This document shows positions 1,086 through 32,564 of a stretch of 37,442 nucleotides of DNA, piece by piece. The notes below the pieces were generated by a model, which did not search any database, was not told the DNA's origin, and saw nothing but the letters and a program-made list of their open reading frames with translations. Within the stretch, counting starts at the first letter, position 1. Each line of letters starts with the position of its first letter. The position numbers were made by a program, and so were the translations under genes. This DNA is from Solirubrobacterales bacterium (GTDB lineage: Bacteria > Actinomycetota > Thermoleophilia > Solirubrobacterales > 70-9), in NCBI GenBank assembly GCA_019694145.1, contig JAIBCJ010000010.1:1-37442 (forward strand). Direction: 5' to 3'.

Positions 1086-1541
1086 ATGTCTGAACGAACG
1101 TGGCGCGTCTACCTTGCCGGCGAAATTCACTCCGACTGGCGGGATCGGGTCGAGGCCGCTTGCGAGGGGCTACCGGTCGTTTTCACCGCCCCGGTGACCG
1201 ATCACCCTGCTTCGGATGCGGCCGGAACCTCGACCCTCGGAGACGAGGAGAAGAAGTTCTGGGCCGATCACAAGGGTGCCGGGGTGAACTCGATCAGGAC
1301 CCAGACCTTCATTCAGGAGGCCGACGTCGTCGTTGTCCGCTTCGGCGACAAGTACCGCCAGTGGAACGCTGCCTTCGACGCCGGATTCGCTTCAGCGCTG
1401 GGAAAGCCCGTAATCACCCAGCACGACGAGGAACTCGATCACGCCCTCAAGGAAGTGGACGCCGCCGCCCGCGCCACCGCCCGCACCCCGGAGCAGGTCG
1501 CGGCCGTTCTCCGGTACGTGATCACCGCCGAACTGGCGTAA
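1086..1541 (+). CDS. ytoQ: YtoQ family protein
   Basis: This 151-residue protein matches the YtoQ family in full length, about 150 residues in Bacillus subtilis. Family hallmarks are VYLAGEIHSDWRD at the N-terminus, the central IRTQTFIQEADVVVVRFGDKYRQWN, and GKPVITQHDEELDHALKEVD near the end. The fold resembles nucleoside 2-deoxyribosyltransferase-like proteins, but to my knowledge the function is not established, so none is assigned. The start is set by the family N-terminus and by the TANNNT element six bases upstream. The gene lies between the SRP RNA and a secreted protein and has no obvious functional partner. Confidence 0.9.
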   Translation: MSERTWRVYLAGEIHSDWRDRVEAACEGLPVVFTAPVTDHPASDAAGTSTLGDEEKKFWADHKGAGVNSIRTQTFIQEADVVVVRFGDKYRQWNAAFDAGFASALGKPVITQHDEELDHALKEVDAAARATARTPEQVAAVLRYVITAELA

Positions 1542-1556
1542 CCGGACACTGTTCGC

Positions 1557-1562
1557 TATGCT
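1557..1562 (+). promoter_or_regulatory. -10 element of the LamG protein gene (TATGCT)
   Basis: TATGCT is eight bases before the ATG at 1571. A weak -35-like CTGGCG sits 18 bases upstream at 1533-1538. The arrangement suggests a leaderless transcript. Confidence 0.45.
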
Positions 1563-1570
1563 TCCGCGAG

Positions 1571-4429
1571 ATGATCTCGGGGGCTAGGCAAATTGTGAGG
1601 CTGGCGGCCATCTTTCTGGCCATGTCGGCGGCCTTGGCTTTTGGTGCCAGCGGCGCTCAGGCAGCGTCGATAAACGTCAATTCCGCTTTCCCTTACATCA
1701 CAGGCAACGACGGGTGGGGCCTGAGCGGCGATGCCAGTGCCAATTTTCTCGTTTACGAGCCCACCGTGAACGTGTACGCCTACAAATTGCCCTACAGCTT
1801 TGGAGATCCGATCGTCTCGAACGGCACGGGCAATGTCGAGGCGTTCACCGGCGACTGGTCGCTGACCATGCACAACCTCGGGACCACCCACATTCTGCCC
1901 GAAGGCAAATACCGCCTCGACATGATTCAGGATCCGCTACTTCCCTACAAGACCGGTGGTATGGCTTCAATCGGGGCGGACGCGGTGATCTATGTGGACC
2001 GGACGGGTCCTCAGACATCGATCAACAGCGTGGTGCCCAACCCGACCGCCTCGACCAACGCGAACTTCACCTTTAGCGCTAACGACTTCAACGCAGCCTT
2101 CAGCGAGACTGGTTCCGGCGTTGCCAGCTTCCAGTGCAGCAAGGACGGCGGGGCCTGGTTCACTTGCGGCAACGACGATGCTTTCGCTTCAATAGGCGAA
2201 ATCACCTACGTGGCTCCCGAGGGCATCCGGAATTTCCGGGTTCGGGCAATCGACCGGCTGGGCAACATCGGGGACCCTGCGAGCTTTGACTGGCTTGTTG
2301 ACCTGACCGACCCCGAGATCCACCTGCCTGCGATCTCCCAAGACGCAAACCAGAACGTCGTACCGGCCTATGTTCTGGGTGAAAACCCGCCAGCCTCGGG
2401 AACCTGCTCCGACCCGCTCGCTGGATCGCCCGCGGGGGCTTCGGGCATTCGTAGCTGCGTAGTGGACCCGGTCAGTACCTCACAGCTCGGTAACTTTTCC
2501 CGTGCTGCGTCGGCAGAGGACAAGGTTGGTCATACCGCGAGCACTCACGGCGCTTACAGAGTCGTGCCGCCGAGGTACAGAGATCTGGTCGCCCAGGATG
2601 ACCCGATCGCCTGGTACCGGCTCGATGATCCGCTCGGGTCCTCGACCCTTATCGACAGTTCCGGTCACAACCACAACGGTGACGCGAAAAACGGACTCGT
2701 GCTCGATCGTGCGCCAGCCCTCGCCTGTCATCAGGTCGTCCGACCCAACGGATGTGAGGTTGCTCATGACATTCGTGGCCGGGCTGCCTACTTCGACGGA
2801 AAGGGGGCCCAGGGAAGGGTGGACGGAATCGTCGCCCCTGCTGGCGGGTTCACCCTTGAGGCCTGGGTCAGGCCGCTGGACGGCGGCAAGATGATGATCG
2901 CCCAGCACGGCGGTTCCGGCGCGCTCTGGATTGACGGGGGCAAGGTCAGTTTCCGGAGCAGTTTCGACAATCCGATCACCGGAGGCCCTGCCTTGATCCC
3001 CGGCGAATGGGCCTATGTGGCCGGTACCTGGGCGAACGGAGTGGGAAGGCTTTATGTGAACGGCGCGCTGGTTGCTTCCGGTTCCATGCCTCACCCACCT
3101 TCTGGCATTTCTACTTTCTATCTCGGTTACGGCGACCAGGCTCCCTGGCTCCACGGGGATCTCGATGAGGTCGCCTATTACGACCACGCCTTGCCGGCTG
3201 GCCGGATCGGCATGCGAAACGCGGTCGGCAGGTACATCGAAACTCCCTCGGCTCCTGGCGGTCCGGATACCACCCGGCCTGACGTGGAGATCAAGTACCC
3301 GCAAAAGAACGCGCTGTATGTCAGGACCAAGGCACCGAAGGCAGCCTTCACGTGCTCCGACCCTGACGGTGACGTTGACATTGCTTCATGTGAAGCGGAC
3401 GTGGACGGAACTCCGATCAATTTTGGCGCTCCTCTTCCCGACTCACCAGGCGCGCATTACCTGCGGGTCGTAGCGAAGAGCCAGAGCGGACTTACCACGG
3501 TCGACATCCACGACTACAAGATCACCAGCTTCGATCAGGTTGTCCTCAAGGATCAACCGGAAGCCTATTTCCGCTTCGACGAATCGTCTGGCTCCGGGGT
3601 CCTGGTCGATCAGACTGCAAGTCACAACGGCGCCTTCAAGAACGACAACGCTCCCGGCGGAACTGGCATCTCGGGTGATGGCAGTGCAACACGCGCCTTT
3701 TTCGGGAAGGGCGGGTACGCGTTTGTCAATGGAATACCGGCTTCCCAGACCGGCTCCACACTCGAGGCCTGGGTCAAGCCGGACGATGCCGGGGACATGG
3801 CGATTCTCGAACATGGCGGCGCCGGGGCACTGTTTATCCGAGGCGGCAAGGTGGTTTTCCGTCACGTAGGAAGCGAGATCGAGTCGCCTCTCGGTGCGGC
3901 ACCAGTCGGGCAAACGACTCAGGTGGTCGGAGTCTGGGACGGCGTCAACATGATCCTTTACGTCAACGGGGTGGAAGTCGCCTCTAAGGAAGCCCCCGGT
4001 CAGCCTTCCGGCTCCTCGACTCTCTATCTGGGATTGGCCAACGTCGGGCTCGCCTCACCGTGGCTGCGCGGCTCACTCGACGAGGTCTCTGTTTACAGCC
4101 ATGCCCTTGAAGCTGGTCAGGTCGACCAGCACTTCAGGGCAGATCCTCCACCCCCAGCGGAGGACAACCCGTCGAGCCACGACCCCGACCAACCTGCCAT
4201 GGATGACCACGTAGTGGACGACCCCGACCAACCGGTCGGCGACGACCCTGACCAGTCGTCCACAGATGACCCGGTCGGTAGCGTGGAAGCCGAGAGCGGC
4301 GGATCGTCACCGAAGTCCGGCGTCAAGTCGAACTCCAAGGCCAGAAGGTCCGCATTGAAGAAGTGCCAACGAATGAGCAACCGCTCGAAGCGCAACCGCT
4401 GCCTGCGCCACGTTCGTAACCGGTTCTAG
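1571..4429 (+). CDS. Secreted protein with two LamG-type (concanavalin-like) domains
   Basis: A 952-residue exported protein. A signal peptide with a hydrophobic core (LAAIFLAMSAALAFGASGAQA) ends near residue 33. Residues about 143-246 form an Ig-like repeat typical of actinobacterial surface proteins (FQCSKDGG, FRVRAIDRLGN). Two LamG jelly rolls follow at about 339-553 and 656-855, each with AWYRLDD/AYFRFDE, TLEAWV, LYVNG and LHGDLDEV/LRGSLDEV signatures. Such domains bind carbohydrate or protein ligands outside the cell. The tail (about 857-952) holds DPDQP-type acidic repeats and then a Lys/Arg-rich segment with two Cys. The frame extends upstream over ytoQ, but that part is not coding. 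GC content looks somewhat lower than in neighbours, judged by eye. Confidence 0.85.
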   Translation: MISGARQIVRLAAIFLAMSAALAFGASGAQAASINVNSAFPYITGNDGWGLSGDASANFLVYEPTVNVYAYKLPYSFGDPIVSNGTGNVEAFTGDWSLTMHNLGTTHILPEGKYRLDMIQDPLLPYKTGGMASIGADAVIYVDRTGPQTSINSVVPNPTASTNANFTFSANDFNAAFSETGSGVASFQCSKDGGAWFTCGNDDAFASIGEITYVAPEGIRNFRVRAIDRLGNIGDPASFDWLVDLTDPEIHLPAISQDANQNVVPAYVLGENPPASGTCSDPLAGSPAGASGIRSCVVDPVSTSQLGNFSRAASAEDKVGHTASTHGAYRVVPPRYRDLVAQDDPIAWYRLDDPLGSSTLIDSSGHNHNGDAKNGLVLDRAPALACHQVVRPNGCEVAHDIRGRAAYFDGKGAQGRVDGIVAPAGGFTLEAWVRPLDGGKMMIAQHGGSGALWIDGGKVSFRSSFDNPITGGPALIPGEWAYVAGTWANGVGRLYVNGALVASGSMPHPPSGISTFYLGYGDQAPWLHGDLDEVAYYDHALPAGRIGMRNAVGRYIETPSAPGGPDTTRPDVEIKYPQKNALYVRTKAPKAAFTCSDPDGDVDIASCEADVDGTPINFGAPLPDSPGAHYLRVVAKSQSGLTTVDIHDYKITSFDQVVLKDQPEAYFRFDESSGSGVLVDQTASHNGAFKNDNAPGGTGISGDGSATRAFFGKGGYAFVNGIPASQTGSTLEAWVKPDDAGDMAILEHGGAGALFIRGGKVVFRHVGSEIESPLGAAPVGQTTQVVGVWDGVNMILYVNGVEVASKEAPGQPSGSSTLYLGLANVGLASPWLRGSLDEVSVYSHALEAGQVDQHFRADPPPPAEDNPSSHDPDQPAMDDHVVDDPDQPVGDDPDQSSTDDPVGSVEAESGGSSPKSGVKSNSKARRSALKKCQRMSNRSKRNRCLRHVRNRF

Positions 4430-25045: not shown

Positions 25046-25819
25046 ATGCGGGGGAAGTTCCGGAAACCGACCTATGCAGAAATTGTCGCGACGCTGGCGC
25101 TCTTCATCGCCCTCGGCGGCATTTCGTACGCGGCGATCAAAATCCCGAACAACAGCGTCGGCACCAAACAACTGAAGAAGAGCGCGGTCAACTCGGCCAA
25201 GGTCCGGGACCGCTCGCTGCTCGCCAAGGATTTCAGGAAGGGCCAGATTCCCCGCGGGGCCACCGGCGCCCAGGGTGCTCCGGGCATGATCGGCCCGACC
25301 GGCGCCGCAGGGGCCACCGGCGCCAGCGGAATCCCCGGTGCGGTCGGTGCTACCGGCCCGACCGGTGCGGCCGGGGTCACTGGCGAGAACGGCGATCCGG
25401 GGCAACCCGGGGGTGCCGGACCAACCGGTCCGACCGGGGTGACCGGGCCCAGCACGACCGCGGTCAGTTCCGGGGTCGTGGTCAATCTCGGGCTCGGCCC
25501 CGACTACTTCCCGATCAGCGGGGCTTCCTCGCCTCAGGGAGCGCCCGACACCGTGGCCTCACTCTCGCCCGGGGTTCCCGTCACCGCTTCCAACCTCGAC
25601 GTGAAACTGACCGCCGCCCCCTTCGCGGGATTTCCTCGCATCGTCAGCCTCCTGGATGATGGTATCGCGGTGCTCAGTTGCGTCATAGCCTCGGGTACCA
25701 CTTGCCACGCGGATACTTCAGCGCTGATCGATCCCGGAAGCGAGCTGGTGATGGTCAGCTCGGTCCTGGCGTTCCCGAGCATCACCACCGCGCGCTTCGG
25801 CTTCACGCTCGGGCCATGA
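25046..25819 (+). CDS. Collagen-like repeat protein 1
   Basis: 257 residues. A short basic start and one hydrophobic helix (about 11-30, [20 protein letters not shown]) anchor or export the protein. A conserved linker follows ([17 protein letters not shown]...RSLLAKDF), then 22 uninterrupted Gly-X-Y triplets at 71-136, rich in GAT, GPT and GAA, which should form a collagen-like triple helix. The C-terminal domain (137-257) is beta-rich with two Cys ([14 protein letters not shown]) and ends in ARFGFTLGP; it may trimerise the molecule or bind ligands. The linker module is common in Thermoleophilia. Function is unknown; surface adhesion or structure is a guess. Confidence 0.85.
25128..25190 (+). 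repeat. Direct repeat, copy 1, in the collagen-like gene pair
   Basis: This stretch encoding the [14 protein letters not shown] linker is nearly identical in DNA to 25983-26045 in the second paralogue, with only a few base differences. It marks a recent duplication or strong conservation. Confidence 0.6.
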
Positions 25820-30181: not shown

Positions 30182-32515
30182 TCAGCTAACGCAGTTGGCC
30201 CGGTGCTTCTTTGGCGGGAACGGGAGGTCGGCGATGGCGGCTGTTTCGAGGTAGCGGTTCTCCATCTTCTTGCCGCTGGCCGCCAGCAGGGCAGCGCCGG
30301 TCTTGCGCAGCTCGGCCCGGGAGCCGTCCTTGCGGACCCAGGGCGCCAGGGTGATGAACTGGCGCTTGGGGCCGGCATACCCCGCGTATGAGGGGTCGTC
30401 CTCGGCCAGCAGCTTGCGGTTGCCGACGTAGTTGCATTTCTTCTTTCCGAGCAGGCCGCGCTGGGTGATCGCGGTCTGGCCGTCGAAGGGCAGGTCGCCG
30501 AGGTTGCCGACCATGTGCGGGGTCACGTTGTAGGTGAACTTGACTCCCGGGTCGACGACCGAGCGCCAGGTCGAGCCCATCCAGTCGAGCGGCTGCCAGT
30601 AGGTGCCTTCGGGGGAAGCCCATTCACCGGGGTTGGCTTCATCCTGCATGACCAGATTGGTCCCGAGGTGGCTGAGGCAACGCATGTAGGTGACGGTGAC
30701 GTCAGCGCAGGGCGCGTCGGTGGAGACCGGGCTGCCGAGGTCGTATCCGAACCGGAAGGCGGGGAGACTGGTCGCGAAGCCGACCCTGGCCTTGGTCCCG
30801 GGGATCCGGTACGGCTTCAGGTTGGCGATCGCGTCGGCACCGGTCGCGGGCCCGGCGGTCACCCCCAGCCCCTGTTCGATCGGGGTGAGCGGCACCTTCA
30901 GGTTGCTGGCGACCACGTTGCGGAGCGGCCGCGGGCCCTCCTGGGTGACCAGCTTCGGCCCCCACATGAAGGCCTCGTTATAAACCTCCGGGCCGGTCGC
31001 CACGTAAACGCTCTTCGGTTTCGGCAGGTCCGGGTCCCGGAACAGGTTGATCTCGGCCGGATCCTGCGATTCACGGAACCTCGGCTGGGTGTTGGAACCG
31101 ACTATGTAGATCCCGTAGCGCCGGGCCATGTCGGAGAAAACCTGCATCCAGCCGCGGGCGTCGGTGTCGGCGGCGGCGACGAAACCGCGAGTGAACGGAT
31201 TCGGGATCGAGTAGCGCGAGGTGTATTCGCCGTCCGGTCCCGCGTAGGCGGCGGTGACCTGCATCAGCGAATAGATCGCCCGGCAGGGCGGCGCCTCACC
31301 GGTGCAGGAAGTGACCGAAGAGGGTTTGGCGAAAGCGGCGCGGGCCGCTGCTCCCCGTGAACCGGTGCCAAGGGTCATCAGACCGACGTCCTCGTTGAAG
31401 GCGACCAGATTCGGCCGGCCCTTCGCCTTGTACGGCACGACCCACTTCCTGATCATGCATTCGATCTTCTTGCGGAAACTCGCGTAGGTCTTGATGTGCC
31501 GGGCTTCCTGCTTGAACTGCATCGCGAACACGCGGGGGCCGCCCCTGGCGTCCTTGCGGCCCAGCATCGCCAGGGCAGGCCGGCGGGTGTCGCGGGCGAA
31601 GGTCGCGTTGCATGACTTGAGGTTCGGAGCCTTCGGGATCGCGGCCAGCGGCGGTGCGACCTTCCTGACCTGGGCCCGGGCCATCAGGGGATCGTTGGTG
31701 ATCAACGCGTCGACTCCGAGCCTGGTCGCTTCCCTGACCCCGGCCGCGTCATCAACCGTCCAGGGAACGACCTGAAGGCCGGCGTGGTGGGCGTCGGAAA
31801 CGAAGGCCTGGTCAATCGGCCACTCCGGTGAAACCCAGTCGATCCCGTTGTCCCTGGCGGCGCTGATCGCGATCGGGTTGACCAGATTGATCGTCAGATA
31901 TGAAGTCTGGGGATCGGGGTCGATCGACTTGAACGTGGTCAGGTTGTCGATCAGGAAGGACTGGATGATCAGCTGCGAGGAAGGGACCCCGGAGTTCTTC
32001 ACCGTGTTGGCGACGATCTCCGCGAACTCGAAGGTGGGGTCCCAGTCGTTGTCGGTGGGGAGGTTCTTGATCTCGATGTTGGCCTTGGCTCCCGTTCTCT
32101 TCAAAACCTGGAGAAATGCCGCCAGGGTGGGGATGCGGGGAGTCGGTCCCGGGTAGCCGGCTCGCAGGTTCGTTGCGGCGTCGCCGATCCCCTTCACATC
32201 GAGCGCGCATTCGGACTCGATTTCGTCAAGGGTCTTGGCCGAAACGGGGCCGGTACAGGTCGTGGTGCGGTCGAGGGTGTCGTCGTGGATGATCACCGGC
32301 ACCTTGTCCGAGGTCAGTTTCACGTCGGCTTCGAGGACGAATCCCCGTTCAATCGACGCGGCGAAGCCACTGCTCGAGTTCTCGGCCTGGGCCGCCTTGC
32401 CGTTTTCAAGCGGGCCGCCGCGGTGAGCGTGGATCCACGGTGAAGCCGATGCCTCGGCCGCGCTGAAAGCCATCGCGACAAGCGCCATGACGAGAATCGA
32501 GAACCTGAACCTCAC
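30182..32515 (-). CDS. Secreted glycerophosphodiester phosphodiesterase fused to a nitrilase-like domain
   Basis: 777 residues. A signal peptide (MRFRFSILVMALVAMAFSAAEASA) leads to a GDPD TIM barrel (about 27-280) with His31-Arg32 in HAHRGG, ENSSSGF, LEADVKLTSDKVPVIIHDDTLDRTT and a second His at 77, the usual general acid/base and metal residues. GDPD enzymes release glycerol phosphate from phospholipid head groups. Residues about 310-777 resemble the carbon-nitrogen hydrolase (nitrilase) family, with a candidate Glu in VAFNEDVGL (about 375) and a candidate nucleophile Cys in MRCLSHLGTNLVMQDEANPGEW (about 611); the Lys is not certain. The start is GTG 32515 after a G-rich AGGGGG. It converges on ahcY. 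Confidence 0.8.
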   Translation of the reverse strand: MRFRFSILVMALVAMAFSAAEASASPWIHAHRGGPLENGKAAQAENSSSGFAASIERGFVLEADVKLTSDKVPVIIHDDTLDRTTTCTGPVSAKTLDEIESECALDVKGIGDAATNLRAGYPGPTPRIPTLAAFLQVLKRTGAKANIEIKNLPTDNDWDPTFEFAEIVANTVKNSGVPSSQLIIQSFLIDNLTTFKSIDPDPQTSYLTINLVNPIAISAARDNGIDWVSPEWPIDQAFVSDAHHAGLQVVPWTVDDAAGVREATRLGVDALITNDPLMARAQVRKVAPPLAAIPKAPNLKSCNATFARDTRRPALAMLGRKDARGGPRVFAMQFKQEARHIKTYASFRKKIECMIRKWVVPYKAKGRPNLVAFNEDVGLMTLGTGSRGAAARAAFAKPSSVTSCTGEAPPCRAIYSLMQVTAAYAGPDGEYTSRYSIPNPFTRGFVAAADTDARGWMQVFSDMARRYGIYIVGSNTQPRFRESQDPAEINLFRDPDLPKPKSVYVATGPEVYNEAFMWGPKLVTQEGPRPLRNVVASNLKVPLTPIEQGLGVTAGPATGADAIANLKPYRIPGTKARVGFATSLPAFRFGYDLGSPVSTDAPCADVTVTYMRCLSHLGTNLVMQDEANPGEWASPEGTYWQPLDWMGSTWRSVVDPGVKFTYNVTPHMVGNLGDLPFDGQTAITQRGLLGKKKCNYVGNRKLLAEDDPSYAGYAGPKRQFITLAPWVRKDGSRAELRKTGAALLAASGKKMENRYLETAAIADLPFPPKKHRANCVS

Positions 32516-32564
32516 TTGAACCCCCTCTGTCTCCAGTCGCCCCGCGGGCGCCTCTCCGTCCGTG

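What the first reader, a model, noticed from the sequence alone, without database searches (positions are those of the whole stretch)
30182..32515. Secreted fusion of glycerophosphodiesterase and nitrilase-like domains
GDPD barrels and carbon-nitrogen hydrolases are both common but rarely fused. Together outside the cell they could strip a glycerophosphodiester and then an amide or nitrile from one substrate, for instance an ethanolamide- or amino-acid-linked lipid. Candidate catalytic residues are visible in both halves.
Basis: partly seen in the sequence, partly recalled or inferred. Interest (0 to 1): 0.58.

Follow-up and report, generated by a model that had tools for sequence, protein, structure and literature searches.

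The report
Secreted phosphodiesterase fused to serine nitrilase
An actinobacterium carries an exported protein that joins a phosphodiesterase to a nitrilase-shaped domain in which the cysteine that normally does the chemistry is a serine, a swap shared by some thirty relatives, so it may be an unusual enzyme rather than an ordinary nitrilase.

Summary
The 777-aa ORF at 30182-32515 (-) is real and kept in relatives: signal peptide (by eye), glycerophosphodiester phosphodiesterase domain (PF03009, E 1e-31) and a nitrilase-fold C-terminal domain (aa ~310-777). That half has no family hit of its own, but its AlphaFold2 model (pLDDT 94.0) matches only nitrilase-superfamily structures in the 50 rows listed (best Z 23.8), and 11 of 33 relatives hit CN_hydrolase. 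The fusion is confirmed. The Glu-Lys-Cys triad is not: the nucleophile position holds Ser583, with Glu375, Lys540 and second Glu547 kept. Of 37 genomes with the family, 34 have Ser there (one gene broken by stops), one Cys, one Gly (Glu and Lys lost too), one is unreadable. The ten cysteines of the mature protein are the same in 8 of 8 fusions, as expected for disulfides. The domain is under strong purifying selection (dN/dS 0.13-0.17). I favour a secreted two-activity protein whose second domain is a serine variant of the nitrilase acyl-enzyme machinery; a non-catalytic binding domain is the main rival. The substrate is unknown. The domain also occurs alone and with a BNR-type C-terminal region.

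The parts
30182..32515 (-). gene for the 777-aa GDPD + nitrilase-fold protein (GTG start, stop at 30182-30184)
   Evidence: full-length relatives aligned
32521..32527 (-). Shine-Dalgarno-like GAGGGGG, 5 nt before the GTG
   Evidence: read from sequence
32441..32515 (-). signal peptide, aa 1-25 (by eye)
   Evidence: basic start, hydrophobic core, ASA-type end; similar N-termini in relatives; no predictor run
31688..32425 (-). GDPD domain, aa 31-276, with H31, R32, E62, D64, H77 and E148 kept
   Evidence: PF03009 E 1e-31; the residues are invariant in 8 of 8 fusions; aligned to 2pz0 from aa 43 on
31589..31687 (-). proline-rich linker, aa 277-309
   Evidence: between the GDPD match and the conserved C-terminal block
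30185..31588 (-). nitrilase-fold domain, aa 310-777
   Evidence: model pLDDT 94.0, Foldseek and VIA matches
31391..31393 (-). Glu375, predicted general base
   Evidence: invariant in 33 of 33 rows of A5
30896..30898 (-). Lys540, predicted oxyanion lysine
   Evidence: invariant 33 of 33; aligned to the Lys of NitFhit/Nit2
30875..30877 (-). Glu547, second glutamate of the nitrilase tetrad
   Evidence: invariant 33 of 33; 7 residues after Lys, as read in the NitFhit segment
30767..30769 (-). Ser583 at the position of the catalytic Cys
   Evidence: alignment to ICYD / VCYD; invariant 33 of 33

Best explanation
An exported two-domain protein. Shown by sequence and model: a GDPD domain with its catalytic residues, joined to a nitrilase-fold domain that keeps Glu375, Lys540 and Glu547 but has Ser583 in place of the catalytic cysteine. 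Inferred: the GDPD domain releases glycerol phosphate from an extracellular glycerophosphodiester. Inferred: the second domain is a serine version of the nitrilase acyl-enzyme machine, with Glu375 activating Ser583, attack on an acyl carbon (ester or amide), the oxyanion held by Lys540, and release by water or transfer to an acceptor. Inferred: the thiol was given up because the protein works in an oxidising place where all its cysteines are paired. The substrate is unknown; an acylated glycerophosphodiester lipid or polymer would suit both domains.
For: Fold. Ser on the Cys position: two profile alignments; 29 of 30 ordinary CN-hydrolases taken from related genomes have Cys in that column. 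Conservation: Glu/Lys/Glu/Ser invariant in 33 of 33 aligned rows down to 23% identity. The 33 rows come from 37 genomes found; of the four dropped, G397 (broken by stops) also reads E/K/E/Ser, G527 has Cys, G503 is cut by a frameshift at the site and G460 has lost Glu, Lys and Ser together, A/R/G. Joint keeping in nearly all and joint loss in one is what a working site predicts. Selection: dN/dS (dN over dS) 0.125-0.168 for the nitrilase-fold domain against 0.29-0.32 for GDPD across three pairs. Secreted setting: signal peptide (by eye); ten Cys in the mature part of 8 of 8 fusions, the same ten columns. GDPD residues invariant in 8 of 8.
Against: No activity data. Engineered Cys-to-Ser changes in ordinary nitrilases are used to disable them; for MtCPA C158S the authors write that reactivity was strongly diminished (PMC4812014, passages). 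No coordinates were available, so the Glu-Lys-Ser distances are not measured. A conserved site can also be a binding site. The shared substrate of the two domains is pure inference, and the domain often occurs without GDPD. The dN/dS values rest on three genes of one genus.
Confidence: 0.5

Rival explanations
1. Non-catalytic ('pseudo-nitrilase') binding domain: the fold binds an acyl, amide or carboxylate ligand with the Glu/Lys/Glu/Ser pocket and steers the GDPD or BNR-type partner to its target, without turnover.
For: Loss of the thiol nucleophile; a Cys-to-Ser nitrilase still binds ligand (MtCPA C158S with putrescine, PMC4812014 passages); one relative has lost the whole site yet is an open gene (G460).
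Against: All four catalytic positions stay invariant in 33 of 33 rows across three architectures, more than ligand binding alone would ask; Ser rather than Ala or Asn each time.
Confidence: 0.33
2. Ordinary Glu-Lys-Cys nitrilase, with one of the conserved cysteines (for example Cys603 or Cys613) as nucleophile.
For: Eight cysteines are conserved in the C-terminal half of the fusions.
Against: Profile alignments put Ser583 at the site; no Cys is invariant in the 33 rows, and Cys603/Cys613 lie in an insertion absent from the BNR-type rows; the Cys count is even and fixed, as for disulfides.
Confidence: 0.05
3. Two unrelated extracellular functions that merely share an export signal; the pairing with GDPD has no joint substrate.
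For: The domain also occurs alone and with a BNR-type partner.
Against: GDPD-fused genes sit together in the tree and span several families of the order (12 of the 37 genomes), so the pairing has lasted.
Confidence: 0.3

Closest known systems
Nitrilase superfamily (CN_hydrolase, PF00795), e.g. beta-ureidopropionase 2vhi, NitN amidase 3hkx/4izt, Nit2, NitFhit 1ems
   Same: Fold (Z 23.8 to 2vhi, 267 aligned residues, rmsd 3.2, 12% identity); catalytic Glu, Lys and second Glu in order
   Different: Ser in place of the catalytic Cys; about 200 residues longer; exported; no sequence-level hit for the window protein itself
GDPD family (PF03009), e.g. 2pz0 and the GP-PDE domains 9f49/9euf
   Same: Whole domain and the catalytic residues
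   Different: Fused to a nitrilase-fold domain
NitFhit (1ems) and other nitrilase fusions (NAD synthetase, DRT1 reverse transcriptase, Lnt)
   Same: Nitrilase fold joined to another domain
   Different: Cys387 in Lnt (PMC5500890, passage) and Cys1116 in DRT1 (PMC13275509, passages) are the nucleophiles there; none has a GDPD partner as far as I recall
Laboratory Cys-to-Ser nitrilases (5nz5 NitN C145S, 4hgd Nit2 C169S, 5h8k MtCPA C158S)
   Same: Same residue swap in the same fold (titles)
   Different: Engineered; here the swap is natural and conserved

Membership tests
GDPD (PF03009) | profile match above the curated cut-off | tested here: met
   111.4 bits against 23.6, aa 31-276
GDPD (PF03009) | catalytic and metal residues (His-Arg, Glu-x-Asp, His; roles recalled) | tested here: met
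   H31, R32, E62, D64, H77, E148 present and invariant in 8 of 8 fusions; the E62-H77 stretch aligned to 2pz0
GDPD (PF03009) | glycerophosphodiester hydrolysis | not testable with these tools
   needs an assay
Nitrilase superfamily | alpha-beta-beta-alpha nitrilase fold | tested here: met
   model pLDDT 94.0; 50 of 50 listed PDB rows are nitrilase-superfamily in both searches
Nitrilase superfamily | sequence match to PF00795 CN_hydrolase | tested here: inconclusive
   window protein none; 11 of 33 aligned members match at E <= 0.01, best 4.6e-7
Nitrilase superfamily | catalytic Glu and Lys (and second Glu) | tested here: met
   E375, K540, E547; 33 of 33; Lys aligned
Nitrilase superfamily | catalytic Cys nucleophile | tested here: not met
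   Ser583 at that position; therefore a nitrilase-fold relative, not filed as a Glu-Lys-Cys nitrilase
Nitrilase superfamily | Glu, Lys and nucleophile close together in space | not testable with these tools
   no coordinates are returned; each lies at most 3 residues after a strand of the model (strands 69-72, 234-239, 277-280; residues 75, 240, 283)

The most novel reading that the evidence does not exclude
A natural branch of the nitrilase superfamily that works outside the cell with a serine nucleophile (Glu-Lys-Glu-Ser), used alone and joined to GDPD or BNR-type domains, so that the superfamily's textbook cysteine is not strictly required.
Probability: 0.5. Interest if true: 0.75.

Novelty: new variant of a known kind. 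Interest (0 to 1): 0.55.

Why it matters
The cysteine is the residue by which nitrilase-superfamily proteins are called enzymes, and changing it to serine is a common way to disable them in the laboratory. A conserved natural serine family would show how the fold supports oxygen-nucleophile chemistry, could suggest enzymes that resist oxidation, and would warn annotators either way (serine enzyme or pseudoenzyme). One labelling experiment can decide between these.

Tried and rejected
Rejected: a Cys nucleophile in the fusion. Rejected: an operon or fixed partner genes for the window gene. Its neighbours are AdoHcyase, a metallo-beta-lactamase-fold protein, Hsp20 and Lon; in the part of the output that I could see, only the two same-genus loci share them, and the BNR-type loci share another set of neighbours. 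No sign of a defence role (PADLOC none) or of mobile origin (no match in plasmids, phages or viral contigs at the limits used). No tRNA in the window, and no promoter-like site and no more terminator-like sites than shuffles give around the gene.

Profile A4 found no PDB chain and profile A2 only chance-level hits. The order of G527 gave no second Cys-type relative (1 of 18 genomes, G527 itself). Nine literature searches were made. Eight returned 0 papers: nitrilase superfamily + pseudoenzyme, nitrilase + catalytic cysteine + replaced by serine, carbon-nitrogen hydrolase + serine nucleophile + nitrilase, nitrilase + C145S, glycerophosphodiester phosphodiesterase + nitrilase + fusion, nitrilase + cysteine to serine + inactive, carbon-nitrogen hydrolase + pseudoenzyme, nitrilase + glycerophosphodiester + domain architecture. 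One broad search listed 30 of 129 papers. These cover only the open library and exact phrases, so they do not show that the swap is unpublished.

Rows dropped before the 33 of 33 count: G397 (two stops; reads Ser), G460 (A/R/G at the sites), G503 (frameshift at the site), G527 (Cys, broken at a contig start). Among the 30 ordinary CN-hydrolases, one (L141) has Gly at the Cys column. More CN-hydrolase matches were listed than these 30; only those for which a locus was kept were examined.

Full report
What was reported.

The gene. An open frame of 777 aa runs from GTG at 32515 to the stop at 30182 on the minus strand. A GAGGGGG sequence lies 5 nt upstream of the GTG. The N-terminus reads as a Sec signal peptide (by eye). 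The genome is a 2.55-Mb, 81%-complete assembly. The nearest named relatives are Solirubrobacterales MAGs, one of them 88% identical over the C-terminal half. The window gene is therefore an intact member of a kept family, not a chance frame.

GDPD half. PF03009 matches aa 31-276 at E 1e-31. H31, R32, E62, D64, H77 and E148, the residues I recall as catalytic or metal-binding in the family, are invariant in 8 of 8 full-length fusions. The E62-H77 stretch aligns with 2pz0. This domain is probably active.

C-terminal half. The window sequence alone hits nothing in Pfam or NCBIfam. Relatives make the link. L011 (G052) hits CN_hydrolase at 4.4e-6, above the curated cut-off, and 11 of the 33 rows of alignment A5 hit it at E <= 0.01. 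NCBIfam's deaminated glutathione amidase model is hit by 7 of 33. The model of aa 301-777 has mean pLDDT 94.0 and pTM 0.94. Its 50 listed Foldseek matches and 50 listed VIA-align rows are all nitrilase-superfamily chains, best Z 23.8 with 267 residues aligned at rmsd 3.2.

The nucleophile. Profile A3 of seven BNR-type relatives aligns with NitFhit (1ems, E 0.0045) and Nit2 (2w1v, E 0.01). Its conserved Lys falls on their Lys, and 'tskd' falls on 'ICYD', so Ser lies on the catalytic Cys. An hhalign run of A5 against 30 ordinary CN-hydrolases from related genomes (E 1.1e-6, probability 91%) gives the same pairing, GFATSLPAF on GLTVCYDVRF. In those 30 the column is Cys in 29 and Gly in one, L141. 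In the window protein this is Ser583, with Glu375, Lys540 and Glu547.

How general. The family was found in 28 of 232 genomes of the order, 22 of 399 of the class sample (all within the order) and 15 of 396 of the phylum sample, in all 37 different genomes. Thirty-three were aligned (A5). All four positions are invariant in 33 of 33, and no cysteine is invariant. The four left out: G397, with two stops, still reads E, K, E, S; G460 reads A, R, E, G; G503 is cut by a frameshift at the site; G527 is Cys-type, broken at a contig start, but shares the 'FEGQSSI' region with this family. So Ser is read in 34 of 37, Cys in one, Gly in one, and one cannot be read.

Architectures. GDPD-fused: 12 of 37 genomes (the window, G001, G010, G018, G021, G036, G049, G300, G364, G399, G415, G416). 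Alone: several, e.g. G047, G267, G367. Followed by a long C-terminal region with weak BNR hits: L011/G052 (0.026), L012/G055 (0.0011), L113/G410 (0.0018), L104/G790 (0.00025); other rows of that clade carry a similar extension but were not all scanned, and the truncated L013 gave no BNR hit. In the tree the GDPD rows and the BNR rows each need one change among labelled rows, though the unlabelled rows are not counted and long branches meet.

Selection and cysteines. Between the window gene and its two same-genus relatives, dN/dS (dN over dS as printed) is 0.125, 0.168 and 0.133 for the nitrilase-fold domain and 0.32, 0.30 and 0.29 for GDPD. The domain that lacks the textbook nucleophile is the more constrained one. 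After aa 25, every one of 8 fusions has exactly ten Cys, in ten invariant columns. An even, fixed set fits five disulfides and leaves no obvious free thiol.

Reading. I take the C-terminal domain to be a nitrilase-fold enzyme or binding domain in which Ser replaced Cys near the base of this family while the rest of the tetrad was kept. I put about 0.5 on a working serine nucleophile and 0.33 on a binding role. For catalysis: invariant tetrad, joint loss in G460, strong constraint. Against: in MtCPA the C158S change strongly diminished reactivity (PMC4812014, passages seen), and there are no activity data. An oxidising extracellular setting gives a reason for dropping a thiol, but this is inference; extracellular Cys nitrilases such as vanins exist (recalled).

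Substrate. GDPD plus an acyl-hydrolase could strip an acylated glycerophosphodiester, for example an N-acyl glycerophosphoethanolamine or an ester-decorated glycerol-phosphate polymer. Nothing here tests that, and the partner swapping speaks against one fixed joint substrate.

Status. It is a new variant of a known kind: a GDPD member by every feature tested, and a nitrilase-fold relative that fails the defining cysteine, so it is not filed as a Glu-Lys-Cys nitrilase.

Noticed in passing
L102:2425-4413 (+) (G460): Open gene of the same family that has lost Glu, Lys and Ser of the site together (A/R/G), a natural example of a fully non-catalytic member.
   Followed up: partly
L107:1-1324 (+) (G527): Cys-type relative (ICYD, FEGQSSI) followed by a divergent InlB B-repeat domain (PF18998 E 9e-17); broken at the contig start. 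A possible outgroup for the Cys-to-Ser swap.
   Followed up: partly
L141 (G003): An otherwise ordinary CN-hydrolase with Gly at the catalytic Cys column (KVGIAIGQD).
   Followed up: no
window 1100-4429 (+): 1109-aa ORF with two Laminin_G_3 (concanavalin A-like) stretches, E 9e-40.
   Followed up: no
window 25046-25819 (+): 257-aa ORF with a collagen triple-helix repeat match (E 7e-9) in an actinobacterium; antisense frames overlap it.
   Followed up: no
L050, L052, L053, L054, L055, L056: The BNR-type genes sit in a partly conserved neighbourhood (rhomboid-like, CBS/CNNM-like and cobalamin-binding-like proteins by eye) across two families of the order.
   Followed up: partly
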